From: Paracidovorax avenae
Lineage (GTDB): Bacteria; Pseudomonadota; Gammaproteobacteria; Burkholderiales; Burkholderiaceae_C
Length of the DNA stretch: 64,000 nucleotides
NCBI RefSeq assembly: GCF_040892545.1
Contig: NZ_CP156079.1
Location: 558,001-622,000, forward strand
Direction: 5' to 3'
Under the pieces are notes generated by a model, which was not told where the DNA came from, made no database searches, and worked only from the letters and a program-made list of their open reading frames with translations. Position numbers and translations under genes: made by a program. This document shows positions 21,544-43,353 of this stretch, piece by piece. Every line of letters begins with the position of its first letter. The first letter of the stretch is position 1.

Positions 21544-23115
21544 ATGGCCATTTCTCTCCAGACGCAGATGCAAACCTCCTCGCTGGGCCTTTCCAGCGAT
21601 TCTTCCGCGGCATCGGGCAGCAGCAGCGGGGACAATCCCCTGCAGCAAATCATGATGCTGATCATCGAGCAGGTGCTCAAGGCGCTGCAGGACAAGCTCG
21701 GCAACAAGGACGGCGGCAAGGCGGCCGGCGGTGCCGATTCCGCGTCCGGTCCCGGCGGTGCCGGCGGCAACCAGGGAGGTTCGGGCCCGGAAGGCGCGCT
21801 GCAGCGCTTTGCCGAACTGTTCAAGGGCCTGAGCGAAGCGCTGGACAAGTCGCTCAATGACCAGAAGGCCAACGATTTCGCGCAGAAGCTGGCCAACGCG
21901 CTGGGCACGGACGCCAAGACGCTGGACAAGCTCGATGACGGCAAGGAAAACGGCAGCTTCAACGACTTCGCCAAGGACTTCATGAAGAACCTGGACTCGC
22001 TCGCCCAGGGCGGCGGTGCGGGTGGCGGTGCCAGCGGCGCGGGCAATGCCGGCGGCGCGGATGGCGCTGGCGGTGCCGGTGGAGCCAGCGGGGCCGAAGG
22101 CGCTGGTGGCGCCGGCGGGGCCGATGGCGCAGACGGCTCCGAGGGCAGCATCGGCGATCTGGTCAAGCAATTGATCGAGCGCTTGCTCAAGGGTGATTCC
22201 AAGGGTGCGGACAACGTGTCGGGCAAGGATGGCGCCGGCGACAAGGGCGGTGCGGACGGCAAGGGCGACGCTTCGCTCGACAAGCTGATGGAAGTGCTCA
22301 AGCAATTCATCCAGCTGCTGGAAATGGCCCTGAAGGGCAACGGCGGCCAGGGTGGCGGCAGCGGCGGCGGTGCCGGCGCTCCCCAGGGCGCTGGTGGTGC
22401 CGGCGGTGCGCAGGGCGGTGCGGGTGGCGCCCAGGGTGGTGCCGGCGGCGCGCAAGGTGCCGGTGGCGGTGCTCCCGCCGGCGGCTCGCCGGAGGCAGGC
22501 GGCGCGCAGGGTGCAGGCGGCACGGGTGGTGGTGCCCAGGGCGCCGACGGTGCCGGCAGCCCCGAGGACCAGATCAAGCAACTGCTCGACGATTTCGCGA
22601 AGGGCAACACCAGCGGCGTGGACAACATGCTCAAGGGCGAGAAAGGCCAGGAGCAGCTCAAGCAGATTCTCGAGATGCTGATGAAGCTGATCGAGGCGCT
22701 GACCGGCAAGAAGGCCGGCGACGACGGCGCCGGCCAGGCAGGCGGCCAGGGTGGTGGCAGCGGCGGTGGATCGCCGGCCGCAGGTGGCGCACAGGGCGGC
22801 CAGGCACCGCAGGGTGGCCAGGCTGCGCCGGCTCCGGCCGCCGCTCCGGCTCCTGCTCCCGCCCCGACCCCGGCACCCCAGCCGTCCGGCACCGCCGCAC
22901 CCCGGCCCACCTCGACCGAGTCGGACACCCGCGACGGCACGCAGCATGACTCCGATCCTGCGGCCAAGACCCGGCCCCCGGTGCCCGAGCCGGTCAAGGC
23001 GCAGCCGCCCGAAGCCACGCAGGCCCAGGCTCCTGCCCCGGCTCCCGCCCCCGCCCCCGCCCCGGCTCCTGCGCCGGCTGCCGCTCCCCAGGAGCAGCAT
23101 GCAGCGTCCCGCTGA
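21544..23115 (+). CDS. Gly-rich harpin-like secreted protein (copy 1)
   Basis: A 523-aa protein with harpin properties: very Gly/Ala-rich, acidic, heat-stable composition, no cysteine, and few aromatics. Amphipathic helical islands (LQQIMMLIIEQVLKALQ; ALQRFAELFKGLSEALDKSL; LMEVLKQFIQLLEMALKG; LKQILEMLMKLIEALTG) are separated by long GGAG-type repeats. The last 110 residues are a Pro/Ala repeat tail. Harpins are T3SS-exported helper proteins that act at plant membranes or walls. This one is much longer than Xanthomonas Hpa1 (about 137 aa). A good ribosome site (AGGAG) precedes the ATG. It is followed by a shorter paralog, and is expressed from the PIP box at 21175. Confidence 0.8.
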   Translation: MAISLQTQMQTSSLGLSSDSSAASGSSSGDNPLQQIMMLIIEQVLKALQDKLGNKDGGKAAGGADSASGPGGAGGNQGGSGPEGALQRFAELFKGLSEALDKSLNDQKANDFAQKLANALGTDAKTLDKLDDGKENGSFNDFAKDFMKNLDSLAQGGGAGGGASGAGNAGGADGAGGAGGASGAEGAGGAGGADGADGSEGSIGDLVKQLIERLLKGDSKGADNVSGKDGAGDKGGADGKGDASLDKLMEVLKQFIQLLEMALKGNGGQGGGSGGGAGAPQGAGGAGGAQGGAGGAQGGAGGAQGAGGGAPAGGSPEAGGAQGAGGTGGGAQGADGAGSPEDQIKQLLDDFAKGNTSGVDNMLKGEKGQEQLKQILEMLMKLIEALTGKKAGDDGAGQAGGQGGGSGGGSPAAGGAQGGQAPQGGQAAPAPAAAPAPAPAPTPAPQPSGTAAPRPTSTESDTRDGTQHDSDPAAKTRPPVPEPVKAQPPEATQAQAPAPAPAPAPAPAPAPAAAPQEQHAASR

Positions 23116-23343: not shown

Positions 23344-24369
23344 ATGTCCGTCTCTCTTCAGACATATTCCCAATCCACGTCGCTGCGGATCACCGAGACG
23401 CCGGCGGCCACGCCGGCCGGCGGTGCGGAGCCGGCGATCGACCAGCTCGTGCTGCAGGTGCTGGAGCAGGTACTCAAAGCCCTGCAGGGCGCCGCCCAGG
23501 GTGGCAACGGCGTCGGCGGCCATTGCGGCGCCGGCGGCACCGGCGGCACGCGCTCCGCTGACGGGCAGCGCAACGGCCCGGAAGGGGTGCTGCAGCGTTT
23601 CGCCGAATTGCTCAAGCACCTGGGCCAGGCGCTGGAGAAATCGCTGGCGGCCGTGCGGGCGAACGCGTTCGCGAACAAGCTGGCACGCGCCCTGGGCTCC
23701 GATGCCCGCACCCTCGACCGGCTGGACGACGGCGCGGAAAACGGGAGCTTCCAGTCCTTCGCGAAGGACTTCCTCAAGAACCTGGATGCGCTCTCGGGCA
23801 ACGGCGCGGCCAGTGGCTCCGGCAGCGTGGGCAGCGGCCATGGGGATGACGACGATGATCTGAGCGATCTCGTGCGCCAGCTGATCCTGGCGATGCTGCT
23901 CGGCAATCCCCAGGCGCTCGCCAAGCTGCTGGGTAACCGCGGCGCCGGCTCCGATGTCCTCCTGAAGGTGCTGGAGCAGTTCGTGCAGCTGCTGGGCCTG
24001 GGCCTGCAGGCTGCGGGTGGTGGCGCTGCGGGCGGCAGCCATGCCGCCGGCGGCGGTGGCGCCGAGGCCATGGCGGAGCTCGTCAAGCAACTGCTGGGCG
24101 CTTTCATGCAGGGCGATACCGGCGGCGTGGACAAGCTGCTGCAGGGCCAGGGCGGCAGGAATTCGCTCCAGCAGATCCTGGCGCTGCTGACGCAGCTGAT
24201 CACGATGCTGTCCGGCGGCAGGCCCGCCGGCGGCGGTGCGGCAGGCCAGGGCGGTGGTACCTGCTCCGGCCATGCCTCGTTCAACAGCGGCAAGGAGGGG
24301 GCCAGGGTGCCTTCGGATGCCGCGCAGGACGGCGCACAGAACTGCGGAACCCGGAGCCATACTGGCTGA
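23344..24369 (+). CDS. Gly-rich harpin-like secreted protein (copy 2)
   Basis: A 341-aa paralog of the preceding protein. The common core is clear: RFAEL-K-LG-ALEKSL, then a block around ALGSDARTLDRLDDG with ENGSFQSFAKDFLKNLDAL, and later GDTGGVDKLLQGQ with QQILALLTQLITMLSG. It lacks the Pro/Ala tail and has shorter Gly linkers. Unlike typical harpins it has three cysteines (GGHCGAG, GTCSGH, QNCGT). No PIP box lies in the 228 bp before it, so it is probably transcribed with copy 1. The bases before both ATGs are similar (TTCACAGGA … ATCC), consistent with tandem duplication. Confidence 0.75.
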   Translation: MSVSLQTYSQSTSLRITETPAATPAGGAEPAIDQLVLQVLEQVLKALQGAAQGGNGVGGHCGAGGTGGTRSADGQRNGPEGVLQRFAELLKHLGQALEKSLAAVRANAFANKLARALGSDARTLDRLDDGAENGSFQSFAKDFLKNLDALSGNGAASGSGSVGSGHGDDDDDLSDLVRQLILAMLLGNPQALAKLLGNRGAGSDVLLKVLEQFVQLLGLGLQAAGGGAAGGSHAAGGGGAEAMAELVKQLLGAFMQGDTGGVDKLLQGQGGRNSLQQILALLTQLITMLSGGRPAGGGAAGQGGGTCSGHASFNSGKEGARVPSDAAQDGAQNCGTRSHTG

Positions 24370-29482: not shown

Positions 29483-30811
29483 TCAGCCCGAGATGTCCGA
29501 GAGCGTATCGACGGAACGCCCGAAGTCCCAGAGGTCGGACGTGGACTGGTTGAGGAAGGCACGGATCTCCTCGTGCTTTTCCATGGCCTCGTCGGCCAGC
29601 GGGTCGTTGCCGGGCTTGTATTCGCCCATCTGCACCAGCGGCTCGATCTCCTCGTACTTGGCCATGAGCTGGCGGAAGCGCCCGCCGGCCTGCTGGTGCT
29701 CCCGCGGCACGATCTGCGACATCACGCGCGAGAGGCTGCCCAGCACGTCGATGGCCGGGTACTGGTTGCGCGCCGCGATCTTGCGCGAGAGGATCATGTG
29801 CCCGTCGAGGATGCCTCGCACTTCCTCCGAGATCGGGTCGTTGCCGCTTTCATCCTCGTAGAGCACGGTATAGAGCGCGGTGATGGAGCCGCGCGCACCC
29901 ATGCCGGCGCGCTCCAGCAGCCGCGGGATCTCGGCGAACACCGAGGGCGGAAAGCCCCGGCGCGCCGGCGGTTCGCCCGCAGCCAGCCCGATCTCCCGCT
30001 GGGCTCGCGCGAAGCGGGTGAGCGAATCCATCATCAGCAGCACCTTCAGGCCCTGGTCGCGGTAGTACTCCGCCACGGCCGTGGCCACGTGCGCCGCCTT
30101 GGCCCGCTCGCTGGAGGAGCGGTCGGAGGTGGCGCAGACCACCACCGAGCGCGCCATCCCTTCCTCGCCGAGGATGAACTCGACGAACTCGCGCACTTCG
30201 CGGCCCCGCTCGCCGATGAGCGCGATTACGCTGACGTCGCACTGCGTGCCGCGCGCGAGCATGCCCATCAGCGTACTCTTGCCCACGCCGGCCGGCGCGA
30301 AGATGCCCATGCGCTGCCCCTCGCCCAGGGTGATGAGGCCGTCGATGGCCTTCACCCCCGTGGGCAGGGGGTGCTCGATCATCTCGCGCTCCATGGGGGT
30401 GGGCGGCAGTGCGAACACGGGCCGCGTCTCGCTGCAGTCCAGCGGGCCCTTGCCATCGATGGGCTGGCCCAGGCTGTCGATCACGCGGCCCAGCAGCCGG
30501 GGGCCGACGGGCACCGAGAGCACCTCGCCCAGGCCCACCACGGGCGATCCGCCGCGCACGCCGAGGATGGAGCCGAAGGGCGAGAGAATGCTCTGCCCGT
30601 TGGCGAAGCCCACCACCTCGGCCGCCTGCAGCAGCCCGCCGCGTTCGTCCAGCACATGGCACAGCTCGCCCAGCTTGGCATCCAGGCCGTTCACGCGCAT
30701 GAGCGTGCCGATCACCTCCGCCACCTTGCCGCTGCGGCGCACCAGCGGGGCGGCGGCGATCTCTCGCTCCATCCAGCGGGCGATCCGCGCGGTTCCGTTC
30801 ACGTCATGCAT
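29483..30811 (-). CDS. hrcN: HrcN, type III secretion ATPase
   Basis: A 442-aa F1-like ATPase (SctN). Walker A is GVGKST (residues 175-180) and Walker B is in [12 protein letters not shown]; the SctN/FliI signatures [25 protein letters not shown] and [19 protein letters not shown] are intact. It unfolds substrates and strips chaperones at the sorting platform. The ATG at 30811 is preferred over 30817 because GGGAGG is then six bases upstream. It is the last gene of the long hrcC operon and overlaps hrcL. Confidence 0.97.
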
Positions 30812-31643
30812 CGCCATCCTCCCGGTCCAGGCGGCTTTCGTCCTGGCCATCGTCCTGGTATTCGTCGTTGTCGTCCTGGTGGCCGCCGTCCTCGCCCAGC
30901 CGGCTCGCATAGGCCACGGTGACCGGCTCCTCGGCGGCCACGCGGACGGCGCGCTCCAGCGCGCCGCGCAGGCCGGCCAGCTGCACCTGCAGGCTGGTGT
31001 CCAGGCGGCCGATATCGGCATCGAAAATGCTGCTGCCGGGCGGGAGGCCGGCATCGGCTTCCACCTGGACGCGCGGGGCGTCGGGGTCGCTGCCGATGGC
31101 CGAGAGCGCGGCGCGTGCCGCGTCCGCATCGTCCGGATGGACGCGCAGGCGTGCGGTACGGGCGTCGCCCAGGGTATCGCGCAAGGTCAGGATCGACCGC
31201 TGCAGCAGCGCCTGCCTCGGCTCCGCCAGCACCATGCGTTCCACCGCCATCGCGACGACGGCCGCCAGGCGCCTTTCCATGCCCGCCATGGCGGCACCGT
31301 GCGATGCCTGCAGCGCGGCGAATTCCGCATGCCAGCGGCGGGCGGCGTCCTCGGAGGCATCGGCCACGGCCTGCTCCGCGAGGAGCCGCGCATCGGCGCG
31401 GGCCTGATCAACCAGCGCTGCGGCATCCGCCGCGGCCTGGTCGCGCATCGCCTGCGCCTGCGTGGCCGCGGCCTCCAGCAGGTCGGCCGCCTCGTGCCTT
31501 GCCTGTGCGAGGAGGTGGTCGCCTTCGGTGCGTGCGCCTTCCAGCAGGGCCACGGCCGTGGTGGCGGTTTCGAATTCAGCGGCCCGAAGAATGCCGGCCG
31601 GCGAATGCAGGCCGGCGCCTCGGGGGGAAGACCAGATCAGCAT
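30804..31643 (-). CDS. hrcL: HrcL (HrpB5-like), ATPase regulator/stator
   Basis: A 279-aa SctL/FliH-type protein. The N-terminal half is an Ala/Glu/Gln coiled coil (about residues 30-110); the C-terminal half has the conserved region [21 protein letters not shown] and ends with a very acidic Asp/Glu tail. It controls HrcN and tethers it to HrcQ. It is somewhat longer than Xanthomonas HrpB5 (233 aa). It overlaps hrpB4 by 7 bp and hrcN by 8 bp. Confidence 0.88.
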
Positions 31644-33138: not shown

Positions 33139-33519
33139 TCACTGGTTGCGCATCAGCGTCTGCAGGCCGCTCTTGCCGCTCTGGGCCAGATAGACCATGG
33201 CATGGAACTGGAACTGCATGCCGGACACCCGGTACATCAGCTCGATCTGGCGGGACGTCATGTCGATGTCGTTCATGGAGTTGTCCTTCTGCGCGTGGGC
33301 CAGCGCGTGCATGTCCTGCAGCGCCTTGCGCATGGATTCATCCTGGTGCATGAGCGCGTTGCCCAGGGTGGAGTCGGGGGCCATCTCGGCCAGGGGGGCC
33401 TGGGGCTTGCCTTCCATCAGGCGTGCGAACTTCTCCGCCAGCGCGCTCAGGTTGCTGGGCTGGGCGGCGCCGGATTCGATGGCCGGCGCGGGGGATACGG
33501 GCAGCTGGAGGGCGTTCAT
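33139..33519 (-). CDS. hrpB2: HrpB2, inner rod-type protein
   Basis: A 126-aa protein matching HrpB2 in size, position (between hrpB1 and hrcJ) and C-terminal pattern (MNDIDMTSRQIELMYRVSGM then QFHAMVYLAQSGKSGLQTL). HrpB2 is needed for pilus assembly and is itself an early export substrate under HpaC/HrcU control; it is the probable inner rod (SctI). Confidence 0.92.
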   Translation of the reverse strand: MNALQLPVSPAPAIESGAAQPSNLSALAEKFARLMEGKPQAPLAEMAPDSTLGNALMHQDESMRKALQDMHALAHAQKDNSMNDIDMTSRQIELMYRVSGMQFQFHAMVYLAQSGKSGLQTLMRNQ

Positions 33520-33560: not shown

Positions 33561-34079
33561 TCAGGCGCGCAGCTGGAATACGAAGGGGTTGGTGAGCGGA
33601 TCCACGGGCGCGAACTTGCGCGGGCGGAATGCGGCCTGCGGATCCGGCGTCTCACCGGACTCCTGTGGGGCGGTGTCCTGGCCGGCAGTGTGGCCATCGG
33701 CATCGCCGGTCTGTGCGAACAATTGCTGCACCAGGTACAGGGCGGTGGGGTCCGTGCAGCCTGCCAGCACCTCGTCGGCATTGGCGCGCCAGGCGGGGTC
33801 TTTCATGAAGCGCTGGCAGCGCGCCATCAGCGCCTTGGCCATGCCCCAGTGGGTGGGGCTGCCTTCCACGTTGCGCATGAGGCGGATGCACTCATCCACC
33901 TGGCCGCGCTGGATGCAGATCCAGCCTTCGAGCAGGTCCAGTTCGACCATGCGCGGGCGCAGGATGCGCGCGCCCTGGAGGATCTCGGCGGCGTCGTCGG
34001 TGAGTTCGAATTCGACGGCTTTCGTCGCCAGATTGATCAGGCCGGCGACCACTTCTCGTCGAGAGATTTTGGGGGTCAT
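33561..34079 (-). CDS. hrpB1: HrpB1, periplasmic/accessory T3SS protein
   Basis: A 172-aa HrpB1/HrpK-family protein made of TPR-like helix pairs (RREVVAGLINLATKAVEFEL; MVELDLLEGWICIQRGQVDE), with the motif DPAWRANADEVL. In Xanthomonas HrpB1 is periplasmic and binds peptidoglycan and HrcD/HrpB2. It follows the 59-aa membrane protein gene with a 4-bp overlap. Two other proteins here (35206-35655 and 42967-43353) share the DPxW motif. Confidence 0.9.
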   Translation of the reverse strand: MTPKISRREVVAGLINLATKAVEFELTDDAAEILQGARILRPRMVELDLLEGWICIQRGQVDECIRLMRNVEGSPTHWGMAKALMARCQRFMKDPAWRANADEVLAGCTDPTALYLVQQLFAQTGDADGHTAGQDTAPQESGETPDPQAAFRPRKFAPVDPLTNPFVFQLRA

Positions 34080-34255
34080 GGAGCGGTCTCCCTGGAGGGT
34101 TTTTGGGGTGCGTCCGACGGGGCGAGTGGCGGCCCGGCGGTGGCCGGCGATTCGCGCAGCGCGGGCTGCGCGGCCGCTTCGGTGCCGGAATGCACCAGAA
34201 CCGCGTAGGCCGCGCAGGAGAGTGTGGCCACGGCCAGGAACACGGCATACGGCAT
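34076..34255 (-). CDS. Small single-pass membrane protein (59 aa)
   Basis: A 59-aa ORF: one hydrophobic helix at the start (MPYAVFLAVATLSCAAYAVL) and a Pro/Ala/Ser-rich tail. It is supported as a real gene by its 4-bp ATGA overlap with hrpB1, the junction type used elsewhere in the cluster, and by an AGGA site upstream. It sits between the pilin genes and hrpB1. Function unknown; it may be an assembly factor in the inner membrane or an uncleaved anchor. Confidence 0.6.
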   Translation of the reverse strand: MPYAVFLAVATLSCAAYAVLVHSGTEAAAQPALRESPATAGPPLAPSDAPQKPSRETAP

Positions 34256-34305
34256 ATGCGTCGTTCCTGGATCGGCGGCTCGGACTGCGCGGGGCACCGC
34301 GTGCA

Positions 34306-34512
34306 TCAGTTGGGTGCGAGGCCGGACAGGCCCTTGCCCATGGCGCCGATGGTCTTGGCGTTCATTTCCGCCATTTCCTTCTGGAAGTTGAGCAGGGCCT
34401 GCTTGGCCATGTTGCGGGTGCTGGCGTCGGTGAGCGCCTCCTGGTTGCGCATGTTTTGTTCCTGCAGTGCGATGGAACGCTGCGTCGATGCGTCTGCGCC
34501 GGAAATGGACAT
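34306..34512 (-). CDS. Hrp pilin-like protein, copy 3 of 3 (operon-distal)
   Basis: A 68-aa protein identical to the products at 34593 and 34880. It is a short hydrophilic helical protein rich in Met, Gln and Ala (core STRNMAKQALLNFQKEMAEM), lacking Cys, Trp, Tyr and Pro except near the end, as expected for T3SS needle/pilus subunits (HrpE, HrpY). Its position after the hrcD and hrpD6-like genes matches hrpE of Xanthomonas and hrpY of Ralstonia. AAGGAG precedes the ATG by eight bases. It differs from the middle copy by one silent base (34315). Confidence 0.65.
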   Translation of the reverse strand: MSISGADASTQRSIALQEQNMRNQEALTDASTRNMAKQALLNFQKEMAEMNAKTIGAMGKGLSGLAPN

Positions 34513-34592
34513 GGTGGGACTCCTTGAGAAAAAGAATGACTGGATGAAAAAGGGGACGATGTCGCGCCACGCCCTGCGCGGCGCCGTGGACA

Positions 34593-34799
34593 TCAGTTGG
34601 GCGCGAGGCCGGACAGGCCCTTGCCCATGGCGCCGATGGTCTTGGCGTTCATTTCCGCCATTTCCTTCTGGAAGTTGAGCAGGGCCTGCTTGGCCATGTT
34701 GCGGGTGCTGGCGTCGGTGAGCGCCTCCTGGTTGCGCATGTTTTGTTCCTGCAGTGCGATGGAACGCTGCGTCGATGCGTCTGCGCCGGAAATGGACAT
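34593..34799 (-). CDS. Hrp pilin-like protein, copy 2 of 3 (middle)
   Basis: An identical 68-aa protein. The whole unit (ORF plus an 80-bp spacer with ribosome site) is repeated at a 287-bp period. It is almost base-for-base equal to copy 3, and differs from copy 1 at four silent positions. Three pilin genes in one operon would raise subunit dosage relative to single-copy ring proteins. Confidence 0.65.
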   Translation of the reverse strand: MSISGADASTQRSIALQEQNMRNQEALTDASTRNMAKQALLNFQKEMAEMNAKTIGAMGKGLSGLAPN

Positions 34800-34879
34800 G
34801 GTGGGACTCCTTGAGAAAAAGAATGACTGGATGAAAAAGGGGACGATGTCGCGCCACGCCCTGCGCGGCGCCGTGGACA

Positions 34880-35086
34880 TCAGTTGGGCGCGAGGCCGGA
34901 CAGGCCCTTGCCCATGGCGCCGATGGTCTTGGCGTTCATTTCCGCCATTTCCTTCTGGAAGTTGAGCAGGGCCTGCTTGGCCATGTTGCGGGTGCTGGCG
35001 TCGGTGAGCGCCTCCTGGTTCCGCATGTTTTGCTCTTGCAGAGCGATGGAACGCTGCGTCGATGCGTCTGCGCCGGAAATGGACAT
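34880..35086 (-). CDS. Hrp pilin-like protein, copy 1 of 3 (operon-proximal)
   Basis: The first pilin gene in transcription order; 68 aa, identical to the other two. Its upstream sequence (CTCGAGGAGTTTTCC) differs from the spacers before copies 2 and 3, so it is probably the ancestral copy from which the two downstream units arose. Lysines are at residues 37, 45, 53 and 60. Assignment as the pilus/needle subunit rests on size, composition and gene order. Confidence 0.65.
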   Translation of the reverse strand: MSISGADASTQRSIALQEQNMRNQEALTDASTRNMAKQALLNFQKEMAEMNAKTIGAMGKGLSGLAPN

Positions 35087-35205
35087 GGAAAACTCCTCGA
35101 GAGAATGTTGCGGTACGAACCGCGGTTAGCGGAGACCGCACCCTGCGGTCTCCATTCGGGAGGCGCACCGGCAACGCCGACGCGCCGTGTCTTGTGGCCT
35201 GCCCG

Positions 35206-35655
35206 TCAGTGGATGACGGGCTTCTGGGTGGCCCGGCCCAGGAAATGCAGAACCCCTTGAGCGGCCTGCCGCACCGGCTGGTCCACGCTGGTCGCCAGCA
35301 CGTTGTCGATCCAGTGGCGCCAGGCGGGGTCGCCGTTGAAGAGCAGCGTGAGCGCCAGGGCGACCTTGCTCACGCCGTCTTCCGGGTGGGTCTCCACGTG
35401 GTGCAGCAACTGGTCGCGCTCCTTGCCCCGCTGTCCGGCCATGGCCAGCACGATGTTGCGGTAGAGCAGGTAGGTGCTCGAGTCCTCCAGGGTGGCCTCG
35501 ACGGCCCGGCTGATCGTGTCCGCGTCGTCGCCGACGCGGTACACGGTGCCCAGCAGGGCGACGCTCATCAGGTTGCGGTAGATCACCGGGTAGGGCGCGG
35601 CCGGCGCTTCGGCGGCGGCGTACGGGGCGGCGGTGGGGCGGGGTGCGTGGATCAT
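35206..35655 (-). CDS. HrpB1-like TPR protein next to the pilin genes
   Basis: A 149-aa helical protein with the motif FNGDPAWRHWIDNVLATSVD and VRQAAQGVL, matching the end of the TPR-like unit in HrpB1. It lies directly upstream of the three pilin genes and 13 bp after the 87-aa gene. In other T3SSs, small TPR proteins of the YscG/EscG class, encoded beside the needle gene, pair with a YscE-like partner to chaperone the needle subunit. The gene pair here fits that arrangement, which is my inference. Confidence 0.6.
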   Translation of the reverse strand: MIHAPRPTAAPYAAAEAPAAPYPVIYRNLMSVALLGTVYRVGDDADTISRAVEATLEDSSTYLLYRNIVLAMAGQRGKERDQLLHHVETHPEDGVSKVALALTLLFNGDPAWRHWIDNVLATSVDQPVRQAAQGVLHFLGRATQKPVIH

Positions 35656-35668
35656 GGTCGTGCCTCCC

Positions 35669-35932
35669 TCACACCGCCAGCGTCGTGCCGTGCAGCGTTT
35701 CCCAGATCTTGCGGATCACGCGCTGCGAGGCCTGGAATGCATCGACCAGCTGGCCGATCAACTGGCGCTCGGCGTCGATCTGCGCCTGGATCCGCATCGC
35801 ACTGCTTTCGCGGGCGACTTCGTCGAAGTAGCGGATCATGGCGCGTGCGCGGTCTCCGCTGAGGTCTTCGCTCAGGGCCTGCTCTAGGTTCTCCAGATCG
35901 CTGAAAATGGTGGATTCGATGGATGCGGTCAT
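35669..35932 (-). CDS. HrpD6/YscE-like small T3SS protein
   Basis: An 87-aa all-helical acidic protein (two long helices, about residues 5-40 and 45-85; LENLEQALSEDLSGDRARAM and ERQLIGQLVDAFQASQRVI). Its place between hrcD and the pilin locus corresponds to hrpD6 in Xanthomonas and hrpX in Ralstonia (a different gene from the regulator hrpX here). It is possibly the co-chaperone of the pilin with the adjacent TPR protein. Confidence 0.6.
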   Translation of the reverse strand: MTASIESTIFSDLENLEQALSEDLSGDRARAMIRYFDEVARESSAMRIQAQIDAERQLIGQLVDAFQASQRVIRKIWETLHGTTLAV

Positions 35933-35957: not shown

Positions 35958-36959
35958 TTATCGGAAGGACGCCGGCTGGTCGGCCGAAGCGATCCGCGAA
36001 CCGGACGTGAGCGAAAGGTGCTTCACCCCGTCCCGGGTCTGCATGTACTGCAGGCCGTCGGTTTCCATCAGCGCGCTCATGGCGGGCGGGCTGGCCGGGG
36101 GGCGCTGGGTCGCGGCCACGTCGATGCCGCGCACCAGCGGTGCCAGGTCGGTGGCCACACGGGCCGCGTTCTGCTTCAGGACCGTGAGGTTCGCCACCTC
36201 TCCCGTGACCGTGAACAGGCCGTTGCCGTGGTGGGCGATGCGCAGTCCGGGCTGGCCCAGTGCGTCGGAGATGCTCTGCGCGACTTCCGTCGCCGAAGCG
36301 AAGGACTGCACGATGCGGTCGCCCTGGAAGCTGGCCAGGCGCTGGCGCAGCGCGTCGGCATCGGAGGGCTGGCGCAGCAGGCCGCGCACCACCACTCCGT
36401 CTCCCTGCTGGACCACTTCGTAGCCCGCCACGGAGGTGTCCGCCAGGGCGCGCTCCACGCGCATCCTCAGCGGCTCGGGCGGCAGCACCGAGGTCAGCGC
36501 CTTGCGTTCCGCCTGGCTCTGGCTCAGGGGGGCGACGGCGGCGCTGAGCGCTGCCGTCATGAGCGCCGTGCCGACCACGGCCGAAGTGATGCGGGGCCAC
36601 ATCGACCGCACCCTGGCTGGTGCGGCGGGCGGGGCGGCCACGACGGCGGCGGCGGGGGCCAGCCGGGCGATGATGTCCGCGTCGGCAGGCCAGGTGGCGT
36701 CGGCGGGGCCGGCGCACAGCACCACGTCGCCGAAGCGCCGGGGCGTGAAGTCGGCCAGGACGGCAGGGGCCTGTGCCTCTGCGGATGCCGTTGCGATGTG
36801 GACCATGCCGTCGTCTCCAGCGTCGATGACCACCGGTTCGGCGGTCCAGTCGAGCAGCTGGATGTCCGCCGTGTCGTCCGCGCTGATATGTTGGCGCGTT
36901 GGAGTCAAATCTATGCGGGCCCCGGCGTGCTGGCCGGTCAGGATACGAAGTTGCTTCAT
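35958..36959 (-). CDS. hrcD: HrcD (HrpD5-like), inner-membrane ring protein
   Basis: A 333-aa SctD/YscD family protein. It has an N-terminal FHA-like cytoplasmic domain (KQLRILTGQHAGARIDLTP), one membrane helix (about residues 122-145, SAVVGTALMTAALSAAVAPL), and periplasmic ring-building domains (EVVQQGDGVVVRGLLRQPSD; NGLFTVTGEVANL). It forms the outer of the two inner-membrane rings with HrcJ. It overlaps the hrcC stop by 4 bp. Confidence 0.9.
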   Translation of the reverse strand: MKQLRILTGQHAGARIDLTPTRQHISADDTADIQLLDWTAEPVVIDAGDDGMVHIATASAEAQAPAVLADFTPRRFGDVVLCAGPADATWPADADIIARLAPAAAVVAAPPAAPARVRSMWPRITSAVVGTALMTAALSAAVAPLSQSQAERKALTSVLPPEPLRMRVERALADTSVAGYEVVQQGDGVVVRGLLRQPSDADALRQRLASFQGDRIVQSFASATEVAQSISDALGQPGLRIAHHGNGLFTVTGEVANLTVLKQNAARVATDLAPLVRGIDVAATQRPPASPPAMSALMETDGLQYMQTRDGVKHLSLTSGSRIASADQPASFR

Positions 36960-39007
36960 GGCTTGCGAACCTCCGGAGAGATCGAGGAAACGGTGGTCGG
37001 TGCGTCTTGCGCGAGGACGCGCGGCGTGATCAGGAACAGGCGCTCGGTGCGGCGGGTGAGGCGCTCCGTGTTGCGGAAAACCCCGCCCACGACGGGCAGC
37101 TTGGACAGGCCCGGCACCGCGTTGTCCTGCGTGTTCTCCGACTCGACGGTGATGCCGCCGATCAGCAGGCTCTCGCCTTCGCGGACGTGGGCCTCGGTGC
37201 GGATCTCGGTCTTCTTGACCAGGGGGATCTGGTCCACCACGTTGGTCTCGAAGGCGCCGTCCTCGATGTAGAGGCTCAGCTTGATGTTGTTCTTGCCTTC
37301 CACCGCGGTGACCTGTGGCGTCATCTGCAGCAGCGTGCCGGCCTCGATCTGGAAGAGATTGGCCTCCAGGTTCCCGGCGACGCGCACGGTGGCCACGCGC
37401 TTCTCGCGCATCACCGCCGCCCGGTTGGCGACGCCCAGCACGGACGGCTTGGACAGGATGCGCGCCTTGCCCTGGGCCTCCAGGGCGTTCACGTTGGCCA
37501 GCAGGTGGCGGCCCGCGTCGAGCACGATGGTGCTGAGCGCGGCCGGGGTGCTCGGGCCGGGCAGGTTGGTGGCGATGCTGCTCGTGCCGGCGCGCAGCGA
37601 CCAGTTCACGCCCAGCGCATCCACGCTGTCGGAGTTGACTTCGATGATCGTGGCCTCCAGCTCGACGAGCTGCGGCTTCTGGTCCAGGCGGCGGATCAGC
37701 GATTCGTATTCGTCCATCCGGTCGGCCCGGCCGTACACGACGACGGAGTTCGTGCCCTCGTCGGCCTCGAACCGGGGAGGTGCTTCCTCGGCCTTGTCCG
37801 CTGCGGTGGCGGTGGGCAGGGACACGGGCTCTGGCGGGCGCATGCCCTCGGAAGGGTTGGCGCGCGGCAGCGGCGGCAGGAACTGGTTGGCCGCGGGCAC
37901 GGGCACGTAGGCGCTCATCTTGCGGCGCGTCTGCTGCTGGATCTTTTCGATCACCTCGGCGCTCGTCACCTTGGAGGACGCCAGCCCTTCGCCGTCATCC
38001 TTGCTGTAGAGCTTGCGCAGCGTGGTGGCCACGCCGGGCACCACGGAGTCGCCCATCGAGCGGTCGCTGGCAGAGGCGAACTGCAGGGAGAAGACGCGCA
38101 CCGTGCGCTCGGCGCTGGCCGTGACACCGGCATCCAGGGCCTCCAGCGCGGAGCTCACGAGTTCCACGTGCCGGGGCGGGCCGGACACATAGATCGTGCT
38201 GCTGGCGGCGTCGAAGCGGATGGGGTAGCGCTTGTCTCCCACGTCCAGGGACTGCAGCATGGCCGTGAGCTGGTCGCGGCTGAATCCCTTGATGCGGAAC
38301 ATGCGGCTCTGGATGGACTTGCCCGGGTAGAAATACAGCGCCGAGCCGTCGTGGTACCAGAGCATGTTGTAGGCGCGCGCCACGCTGTCGAGGAACTCCC
38401 GGGGCTTCGCGTCGAAGTTCGCGTTGACGATGCCGTCCAGCCCGTCCGCCACCACGGCGGGGATGCCCTGGCTGGCGGCGAAATCCTGCAGGACGTCCGT
38501 GAGTCGCTTGTTCTCCGCGCGGTACACGAAGCGCCCGCGGTTGAGGACGTCGGAAGCCCGCGAGGCAGGCGTGAGCGTTTCCAGTGCCCGGGCGGCGGGG
38601 ATGGTCGGTATCGCCACGGGTGCGGTGGCGGCCGGAGCGGGCGCGCTGGCGGCGGCTGCGCCGACGGCGCCTGCCGAGAAGGTCGCCGCTGCCAGCGCAT
38701 GGTAGGGGGTGTGCTTGCGCGGCGGGGCCTTCTGCAGCGTGTTGCTGCGCTGGGCCGGGGCGGGCGCAGCGGCCGTGCTGGAGGGAGCGGCGTCCGTGCC
38801 GGCCGTGGCCAGTTCCGCGGCGGGCACCGCCAGGGCGGCGCCTGCGCCCGCCGTGGGCAGGCTGGAGAGGCTGGCGCTCAGCCGCAGCGAGGAGGCCTGG
38901 GCTGCGGGCAGGCCGGCCATGCCCAGCGCGAGCACCGCGCCGGCCAGCACGCTGCCGGTCATGCCGGTGGCTGCATGCCGTGGTCGGGGGGCGGAAATTT
39001 TGGGCAT
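36956..39007 (-). CDS. hrcC: HrcC, outer-membrane secretin
   Basis: A 683-aa secretin (SctC). It has a signal peptide (MPKISAPRPRHAATGMTG… then a hydrophobic core ending AQASS), an Ala-rich linker, N-domains (about 165-380), and the secretin core with LVELEATIIEVNSDSVDALG, RILSKPSVLG and GESLLIGGITVE, ending LFLITPRVL. It forms the outer-membrane channel. It heads the long operon down to hrcN and has a perfect PIP promoter with a predicted leader of about 32 nt. Confidence 0.96.
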   Translation of the reverse strand: MPKISAPRPRHAATGMTGSVLAGAVLALGMAGLPAAQASSLRLSASLSSLPTAGAGAALAVPAAELATAGTDAAPSSTAAAPAPAQRSNTLQKAPPRKHTPYHALAAATFSAGAVGAAAASAPAPAATAPVAIPTIPAARALETLTPASRASDVLNRGRFVYRAENKRLTDVLQDFAASQGIPAVVADGLDGIVNANFDAKPREFLDSVARAYNMLWYHDGSALYFYPGKSIQSRMFRIKGFSRDQLTAMLQSLDVGDKRYPIRFDAASSTIYVSGPPRHVELVSSALEALDAGVTASAERTVRVFSLQFASASDRSMGDSVVPGVATTLRKLYSKDDGEGLASSKVTSAEVIEKIQQQTRRKMSAYVPVPAANQFLPPLPRANPSEGMRPPEPVSLPTATAADKAEEAPPRFEADEGTNSVVVYGRADRMDEYESLIRRLDQKPQLVELEATIIEVNSDSVDALGVNWSLRAGTSSIATNLPGPSTPAALSTIVLDAGRHLLANVNALEAQGKARILSKPSVLGVANRAAVMREKRVATVRVAGNLEANLFQIEAGTLLQMTPQVTAVEGKNNIKLSLYIEDGAFETNVVDQIPLVKKTEIRTEAHVREGESLLIGGITVESENTQDNAVPGLSKLPVVGGVFRNTERLTRRTERLFLITPRVLAQDAPTTVSSISPEVRKP

Positions 39008-39045
39008 CACTGGAGCGCTCCGTTCGGTGTCTTCGTGTGGGGGAC

Positions 39046-39107
39046 AGCTTAGGAGCCGGTGCCGGGCGGAGTGCGCGGGGATGCGAAGCCGCGCGACGGC
39101 TTGCGAA
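39046..39107 (-). promoter_or_regulatory. PIP-box promoter of the hrcC-hrcN operon
   Basis: On the minus strand: TTCGC-N15-TTCGC (39083-39107), 31 nt, then TAAGCT (39046-39051). It should drive hrcC, hrcD, the pilin locus, hrpB1, hrpB2, hrcJ, hrpB4, hrcL and hrcN. Confidence 0.85.
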
Positions 39108-39140
39108 GCCCTCCGCAGCGCCCGCCGTGCGGCAGGTTCC

Positions 39141-39165
39141 TTCGCCTTTCGGGTCATCGCTTCGA
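39141..39165 (+). promoter_or_regulatory. Imperfect PIP box facing the methyltransferase gene
   Basis: TTCGC-N15-TTCGA lies 34 bp from the hrcC PIP box in the opposite direction. The last base is A, which the consensus excludes, and no YANNNT element is found at 30-32 nt. It may be degenerate or non-functional. It lies in the 309-bp gap between hrcC and the methyltransferase gene, which otherwise holds no gene. Confidence 0.35.
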
Positions 39166-42966: not shown

Positions 42967-43353
42967 TCAGGCCGCCAGGGCCGCGGGCTCGTCCTCGGGT
43001 TCCATCTGCAGCAGCTGGCGCATTGCCTTGCGCACGTGCGGGTCGTCGCTTTCCAGGCACTGCTGCGCGTGGTAATGCCAGGTGGGGTCGCCCAGGATGT
43101 TCAGGCACAGGGCCTTGAGCTCCGGCGCGGTGTCCTCGCCCAGGGTGTTCAGGTACTGCAGCGCCTCGGTGATGTAGCCGCGCTGGATGGCGATCAGCAC
43201 CGGGAAGATCAGGTGCTCCTCGGTTTCGGGGCTCAGGGCGTTCATCTCGTCGAGCAGCGTCTCGGCTTCGTCGAGGCGGTCGTCGCGCAGCGCCTCCACC
43301 AGGCGCACGGCCAGGGCGGCGACGGGGTCATCGGGAAGTTGGGTTTCGTCCAT
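42967..43353 (-). CDS. HrpB1-like small TPR protein (128 aa)
   Basis: A highly acidic helical protein with helix-pair repeats (LVEALRDDRLDEAETLLDEM; FPVLIAIQRGYITEALQYL) and the motif GDPTWHYHAQQCLESDDPHV, the third instance of DPxW-x3-A-type sequence in the cluster. It lies 80 bp after the 565-aa gene. Small acidic TPR proteins next to large secreted-protein genes often act as class II chaperones for translocators (SycD-like, though shorter). That role is inferred. Confidence 0.55.
   Translation of the reverse strand: MDETQLPDDPVAALAVRLVEALRDDRLDEAETLLDEMNALSPETEEHLIFPVLIAIQRGYITEALQYLNTLGEDTAPELKALCLNILGDPTWHYHAQQCLESDDPHVRKAMRQLLQMEPEDEPAALAA

What the first reader, a model, noticed from the sequence alone, without database searches (positions are those of the whole stretch)
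34306..35086. Triplicated, protein-identical Hrp pilin-like gene
Three 287-bp tandem units each encode the same 68-aa protein; all base differences (one between units 1 and 2, four between units 2 and 3) are silent. Hrp pilus subunits are normally single-copy. Purifying selection or gene conversion on a tandem array, with its own ribosome site in each unit, suggests selection for dosage of a structural subunit, or a locus whose copy number varies between strains by slipped recombination.
Basis: partly seen in the sequence, partly recalled or inferred. Interest (0 to 1): 0.78.

Follow-up and report, generated by a model that had tools for sequence, protein, structure and literature searches.

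The report
Tandem array of injectisome pilus genes
Plant-associated bacteria of the Paracidovorax/Acidovorax group carry two to five side-by-side copies of a small gene that most likely makes the shaft of their protein-injection pilus; the copies are kept alike within most species while differing between species, and a published name appears to have put the pilus label on the wrong gene.

Summary
Confirmed: three 287-bp units encode the same 68-aa protein; all coding differences are silent. It is not an isolated duplication. All 8 genus members whose locus is unbroken carry 2-5 units in this slot; 5 drafts have contig ends inside it. Copies are homogenised within genomes (14 of 15 units of the five 3-copy genomes are nearest to a unit of their own genome). 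In 22 more distant clusters the slot holds 5-6 copies (4), 2 copies (4), one (11) or is cut by a contig end (3), so arrays probably arose more than once. Size, predicted helix, fast divergence, position after hrpD5-hrpD6 and a preceding TPR protein resembling needle chaperones support the Hrp pilin reading; secretion and filament assembly are untested. Two covarying RNA hairpins precede the array. The 'hrpE' studied in A. citrulli (Aave_0464) is reported with a FliH domain, so it is the SctL stator; the real pilin gene seems unnamed. An unlinked gene, with a HrpX-type box in 10 of 12 genomes, encodes a longer protein ending in a pilin-like domain. Most likely: dosage of a filament subunit within a long operon, kept uniform by recombination, with occasional diverged copies.

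The parts
34593..34799 (-). pilin-like gene, second copy, identical protein
34306..34512 (-). pilin-like gene, third copy, identical protein
34800..34879 (-). 80-bp spacer between first and second copy, with ribosome site; identical to the next spacer
34513..34592 (-). 80-bp spacer between second and third copy
35131..35153 (-). RNA hairpin 1 (10-bp stem) upstream of the array; base pairs covary across the genus
35110..35123 (-). RNA hairpin 2 upstream of the array; its loop-closing pair covaries, the other four pairs never vary
35206..35655 (-). 149-aa TPR-like protein; HrpB1/HrpK match below cut-off; predicted fold like needle-subunit chaperones YscG/PscG and other TPR proteins
35669..35932 (-). 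hrpD6-like gene (NF041505, 31.6 bits, below its cut-off of 100)
35958..36959 (-). hrpD5 (sctD-type), NF041525 354.5 bits, over cut-off
36956..39157 (-). hrcC / sctC secretin
39083..39107 (-). HrpX/PIP-box match near the start of the hrcC-to-hrcN gene run; it lies inside the longest hrcC ORF, so the true hrcC start may be downstream (inference)
33561..34079 (-). HrpB1/HrpK family protein downstream of the array
33139..33519 (-). hrpB2 (inner-rod type, as recalled)
30804..31643 (-). sctL stator (FliH domain), the gene whose counterpart is published as 'hrpE' in A. citrulli

Best explanation
The array encodes the Hrp pilus (type III filament) subunit of a group II Hrp injectisome. Shown: three protein-identical tandem copies in the pilin slot, two to five units in every unbroken genus locus, homogenisation within genomes, a covarying two-hairpin leader. 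Inferred: the protein polymerises into the pilus; the copies raise subunit supply from one long co-oriented gene run (hrcC to hrcN) in which the filament needs far more molecules than its neighbours; the hairpins separate, stabilise or attenuate the pilin part of the mRNA; recombination between tandem units keeps copies uniform, so that the filament stays close to a homopolymer while its sequence can change fast between species.
For: Position after hrpD5 and an hrpD6-like gene and before HrpB1-HrpB2-HrcJ; in other species pilin-like short ORFs lie between hrpD6 and hpaB (PMC5483457). 68 aa and a predicted single helix at residues 3-64 fit the published pilin criteria of 66-113 aa and almost only helix (PMC3973906 passages). 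In a list of ORFs of 45-115 aa with a ribosome site the one other evident real small gene is hrcS. The preceding 149-aa protein is predicted TPR and aligns to YscG and PscG, the needle-subunit chaperones, over 111 of 112 and 112 of 113 residues at 2.8 and 3.1 A. Two or more units in 8 of 8 unbroken genus loci. Within-genome dS 0.02-0.20 in the five 3-copy genomes, against means of 0.22-0.31 for units and 0.33-0.93 for flanking genes between the two subclades. 14 of 15 units have a same-genome nearest neighbour. Hairpins: 96.1% of cells paired, covariation score above all 500 shuffles, slid versions at most 53.1% paired.
Confidence: 0.8

Rival explanations
1. Array of specialised subunits: the copies are not only dosage; diverged copies are minor pilins (base, tip or stage-specific), giving a heteropolymeric pilus.
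For: In G010 the fifth copy differs from the first four at dS 0.86-1.14 and 12 residues; G011's fourth copy differs; G012's two units are clearly unlike though alignable; three Collimonas-type genomes (G318, G830, G789) have four like copies plus two diverged 3' copies, G873 three plus two; G232 and G1031 copies have unlike N-termini and like C-terminal parts, G111 copies differ mainly at the N-terminus; G005's first copy differs from the others by 7 residues.
Against: In the window and in G009 all three proteins are identical, so specialisation cannot be general.
Confidence: 0.35
2. Nearly neutral tandem duplication: unequal crossing-over makes and loses copies, conversion homogenises them, without selection on dosage.
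For: Copy number differs between species; 11 of 22 distant clusters have one copy.
Against: Tandem copies in bacteria are easily lost (general knowledge), yet 8 of 8 unbroken genus loci keep at least two, with intact frames and ribosome sites, and arrays recur elsewhere with unlike sequences.
Confidence: 0.2
3. The 68-aa protein is another secreted or accessory type III protein (harpin-like, rod or chaperone partner), and the pilin lies elsewhere.
For: No homology to an experimentally shown pilin was demonstrated; a table in print puts the name HrpY on Aave_0456 (PMC9748350).
Against: By gene order Aave_0456 corresponds to a 523-aa glycine-rich protein in the window (21544-23115), outside the pilin size range; no better candidate was seen in the ORF list.
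Confidence: 0.12
4. Assembly artefact.
For: None beyond repeat structure.
Against: Single-contig genome, non-identical units, other genome records with arrays and their own spacers.
Confidence: 0.01

Closest known systems
Hrp pilin HrpE (Xanthomonas) / HrpY (Ralstonia)
   Same: group II Hrp cluster, slot near hrpD6, small helical protein, fast-diverging sequence (PMC5483457, PMC3973906)
   Different: those are single genes (my recall; PMC3973906 names one major pilin per species); here an array with homogenised copies; direct homology not tested
YscE-YscF-YscG / PscE-PscF-PscG needle subunit with two chaperones
   Same: small protein plus TPR protein encoded next to the filament subunit (arrangement recalled); the TPR neighbour aligns to YscG/PscG
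   Different: the subunit is not predicted as the needle helix-loop-helix and is multicopy; HrpD6 as a YscE counterpart is inference only
'HrpE' of Acidovorax citrulli, Aave_0464 (PMC9409176)
   Same: published as the Hrp pilus gene of this genus
   Different: the paper itself reports a FliH domain at residues 95-255; gene order HrcN-E-B4-J and the window gene identify it as the SctL stator
Multicopy flagellin genes (recalled)
   Same: several gene copies for one filament subunit, gene conversion
   Different: flagellum, not an injectisome; no relation claimed

Membership tests
Hrp pilin (HrpA/HrpE/HrpY type) | size 66-113 aa in plant pathogens | tested here: met
   68 aa; criterion from PMC3973906 passages. 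Collimonas-type units (about 48-50 aa) fall below it
Hrp pilin (HrpA/HrpE/HrpY type) | almost exclusively alpha-helical | tested here: met
   AF2 helix 3-64, mean pLDDT 78.8, pTM 0.38; moderate confidence
Hrp pilin (HrpA/HrpE/HrpY type) | encoded in hrp cluster near hrpD6 | tested here: met
   hrpD5 354.5 bits over cut-off; hrpD6-like 31.6 bits, under its cut-off of 100
Hrp pilin (HrpA/HrpE/HrpY type) | sequence relation to a proven pilin | not tested
   no pilin model matched; sequences of proven pilins were not fetched
Hrp pilin (HrpA/HrpE/HrpY type) | secreted by the T3SS and polymerises into surface pili | not testable with these tools
   needs EM and proteomics
SctF needle subunit (YscF/PrgI/MxiH) | helix-loop-helix fold, sequence match | tested here: inconclusive
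   single helix predicted; no PDB sequence match of note and no Foldseek hit
Needle chaperone YscG/PscG (for the 149-aa neighbour) | TPR fold of about 115 residues | tested here: inconclusive
Hrp pilin, as applied in print to A. citrulli Aave_0464 | small subunit without other domain | tested here: not met
   FliH domain at 95-255 (PMC9409176); window counterpart is 279 aa with PF02108 at 106-222 over its cut-off and SctL-family models as best matches, below their cut-offs

The most novel reading that the evidence does not exclude
The array makes a pilus whose copy number and sequence are tuned as a unit by recombination, with diverged copies as minor subunits; and a second, unlinked gene under a HrpX-type box (window genome at 2.77 Mb; box 91-96 bp before the proposed start in 10 of 12 genus loci) makes a 177-576-aa, mostly low-complexity protein whose C-terminal 60 residues are a pilin-like domain (44% identical to the window pilin over residues 6-64), which could copolymerise with or cap the Hrp pilus: a pilus-integrated secreted protein.
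Probability: 0.2. Interest if true: 0.85.

Novelty: new variant of a known kind. Interest (0 to 1): 0.62.

Why it matters
It gives a natural set of systems with 1 to 6 copies of a likely injectisome filament gene, so that subunit dosage, filament uniformity and fast pilin change can be studied together. It also points to the likely true pilin gene of a crop pathogen genus, where the phenotypes published for 'hrpE' (PMC9409176) would belong to the SctL stator, and it explains contig breaks at this place in draft genomes.

Tried and rejected
Led nowhere: Pfam and NCBIfam for the 68-aa protein and for several distant slot proteins; PDB sequence search; Foldseek with the pilin model; tblastn of the 68-aa protein in plasmids and phages; the 75-aa slot protein of G742 as query found only itself. 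Paper searches listed no paper that, by title or abstract start, describes tandem Hrp pilin genes; I opened seven papers: PMC9409176, PMC5483457, PMC3973906 and PMC9748350, cited in this report, and PMC5880930 (passages) and PMC6913199 (passages), which named no pilin gene in what I saw (PMC1367247 was not held). The library lacks most subscription papers.

Considered and dropped: that arrays replace a missing promoter (single-copy slots lack a HrpX box within 1 kb too); that copies are one-to-one orthologues by position (same-position copies are no closer); that the C-terminal domain of the dispersed gene simply tracks the pilin of its own clade (mixed: pilin1-domain1 37.0%, pilin1-domain2 32.6%, pilin2-domain2 31.7%, pilin2-domain1 25.9%, but domain1-domain2 38.5%). 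A C-terminal motif in 5 of 15 slot proteins was built from the same sequences and is not counted as evidence. Slot proteins in the 22 distant genomes were picked by eye from ORF lists. hrpD5 scans scored only some first-look candidates per genome, so clusters can have been missed. G014 was left out of the hairpin alignment because the script's anchor missed it. One search held one row read on the wrong strand; it was replaced. HrpB1 was not found by script in G003 and so is missing from its comparisons. No shuffle control was run for the boxes.

Full report
What is there. Three tandem units (34306-35086, minus strand) each encode the same 68-aa protein; all five coding differences are third-position, both 80-bp spacers are identical, and the period is 287 bp. 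The window lies in a single-contig chromosome of 5,625,582 bases. Named neighbours place it with Paracidovorax: hrpD5 relatives in named genomes are P. oryzae (96%), P. cattleyae (91%), P. citrulli (88%), P. konjaci (82%), P. anthurii (78%) and an uncultured Acidovorax MAG (72%). Protein relatives that carry a name are called hypothetical or uncharacterised.

Context. Reading with transcription: hrcC, hrpD5 (NF041525, 354.5 bits), an hrpD6-like gene (below cut-off), a 149-aa gene with a weak HrpB1/K match, the array, a short ORF with a hydrophobic segment, HrpB1/HrpK, HrpB2, HrcJ, a gene in the HrpB4 position, SctL, HrcN. A HrpX-type box lies near the start of this run (39083-39107); 8 such matches occur in the window against 0.81 expected; none lies within 1.5 kb upstream of the array.

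Is it a pilin? Criteria in print: 66-113 aa in plant pathogens, nearly all helix, low or no similarity between species (PMC3973906, passages seen); short ORFs between hrpD6 and hpaB may be pilin-like in Collimonas and P. andropogonis (PMC5483457, passages and one section read). The 68-aa protein meets size, helix and a place near the hrpD6-like gene. Its upstream neighbour is predicted TPR and overlays YscG and PscG over nearly their whole length at 2.8-3.1 A, though Z ties with other TPR chains, no Foldseek match reached E 0.001 and the model is of moderate confidence (pLDDT 69.6). In a list of ORFs of 45-115 aa with a ribosome site no rival stands out, but that filter missed the hrpD6-like gene and is not exhaustive. 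Secretion and polymerisation are not shown.

Names in print. The A. citrulli 'hrpE' paper (PMC9409176; abstract, sections 3, 5 and 20, part 1 of section 16, and passages) deleted Aave_0464 and reports a FliH domain at residues 95-255. A gene table in PMC9748350 (passages seen) orders Aave_0463 HrcN, 0464 E, 0465 B4, 0466 J, 0473 D, 0474 C. The window's counterpart between HrcN and the B4 position is a 279-aa protein with FliH at 106-222 (over cut-off) and SctL-family models as its best NCBIfam matches, below their cut-offs. So that 'hrpE' is the stator. By the same order 'HrpY' (Aave_0456) falls on a 523-aa glycine-rich protein. I infer that the pilin gene of this genus is unnamed; the match of Aave tags to window genes rests on order and domain, since I did not fetch AAC00-1.

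Genus survey. Of 17 genomes (the window's included), 13 have hrpD5. Eight have an unbroken locus: G000, G002, G003, G005, G009 with 3 copies, G010 with 5, G011 with 4, G012 with 2 unlike units. Five drafts (G001, G004, G006, G014, G015) have contig ends inside a unit. The four without hrpD5 gave no pilin hit. The G010-G012 proteins are 23-33% identical to the window's, so the same slot holds very unlike versions of the subunit. In a sample of 299 genomes of the family only two genus members matched the 68-aa protein.

Concerted evolution. In the five 3-copy genomes within-genome dS is 0.02-0.20; between the two subclades unit means are 0.22-0.31 and flanking genes 0.33-0.93. In G011 three copies are identical at DNA level; in G010 four are nearly so while the fifth is far off (dS 0.86-1.14). 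14 of 15 units have their nearest neighbour in the same genome; mean differences are 6.7 within and 18.8 between genomes (0 of 2000 label shuffles as strong); copies at the same position in different genomes are no closer (18.8). For G000, G002 and G003 alone 5 of 2000 shuffles are as strong. Against a simple picture: G005-G009 alone is weak (182 of 2000), G002's middle unit is nearest to a G000 unit, and G000-G002 units are more diverged than their flanks.

Leader. Two hairpins stand just before the first copy. On 12 of the 13 hrpD5 genomes, 96.1% of cells pair, 4 pairs change on both sides (38 of 500 shuffles reach this), 11 cells change on both sides (0 of 500), further pair types 12 (171 of 500), and the covariation score exceeds all 500 shuffles; sliding the partner drops pairing to at most 53.1% (RNAalifold finds the same two hairpins on its own). 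The shuffles do not allow for relatedness. A pair of hairpins also precedes the Collimonas-type arrays, with no evident sequence likeness; the two-copy G853 shows none of note. In the window no T-run follows hairpin 2, but G012 and the Collimonas-type genomes have five T's shortly after it, so I cannot choose between mRNA stabilisation or processing and partial termination.

Beyond the genus. From scans of 399, 294 and 399 genomes (overlapping samples, capped scoring) I examined all 22 non-genus genomes with hrpD5 hits of 180 bits or more. Four (G318, G873, G830, G789; one genus; G318's length, 5,186,898, equals my recollection of C. fungivorans Ter331) hold 6, 5, 6 and 6 tandem copies of a protein of about 48-50 aa and unlike sequence; two of that genus (G851, G721) end in the array; four (G853, G232, G1031, G111) have two tandem copies; eleven have one; in one (G241) the contig ends before the slot. 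A repeat scan of 54 loci of the first two searches found tandem repeats in 6, five of the Collimonas-type genus and G853. Unlike sequences and the scatter of single-copy systems suggest several independent expansions; I made no formal test of that.

The dispersed relative. A second locus in 12 of 17 genus genomes encodes a protein of 177-576 aa, by eye largely low-complexity, ending in a pilin-like domain. In 10 of 12 a HrpX-type box begins 91-96 bp before the proposed start; G001 and G005 have none in 300 bp. It may be a secreted protein that joins the pilus; that is the boldest reading left open.

Mechanism, with standing. Shown: array, homogenisation, hairpins, co-oriented gene run. Inferred: pilin identity (about 0.8), dosage as the selected effect (about 0.5), gene conversion or unequal crossing-over as the homogeniser (well supported together, not separable here), mRNA-level control by the hairpins (about 0.4).

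Noticed in passing
G000:C1:2773794-2773970 (L004 1501-1677; L043) and eleven genus counterparts (L062-L072): Unlinked gene, in most genomes with a HrpX-type box, encodes a long low-complexity protein ending in a pilin-like domain; the G009 version carries long internal repeats and G005 a shorter run of them.
   Followed up: partly
window 30804-31643: Counterpart of the published A. citrulli 'hrpE' is the SctL stator, so the published pilus phenotypes likely concern the ATPase stator.
   Followed up: yes
window 21544-23115 and 23344-24369: Two glycine-rich, harpin-like proteins with related N-termini next to hrcT; by gene order one stands where 'HrpY' is named in A. citrulli.
   Followed up: partly
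window about 34080-34256: Short ORF with a hydrophobic N-terminal segment directly after the array; similar stretches follow the arrays of other genus members.
   Followed up: no
window 33561-34079, 35206-35655, 42967-43353: Three HrpB1/HrpK-like proteins in one cluster (one below cut-off); the third also weakly matches the SctY chaperone model.
   Followed up: no
G232, G1031, G111 (L172, L173, L180): Two-copy slots whose copies share the C-terminal part and differ at the N-terminus.
   Followed up: no
L104, L137, L139, L140: HrpX-type box match 453 bp before the first unit of the Collimonas-type arrays, inside or near the hrpD6-position gene.
   Followed up: no
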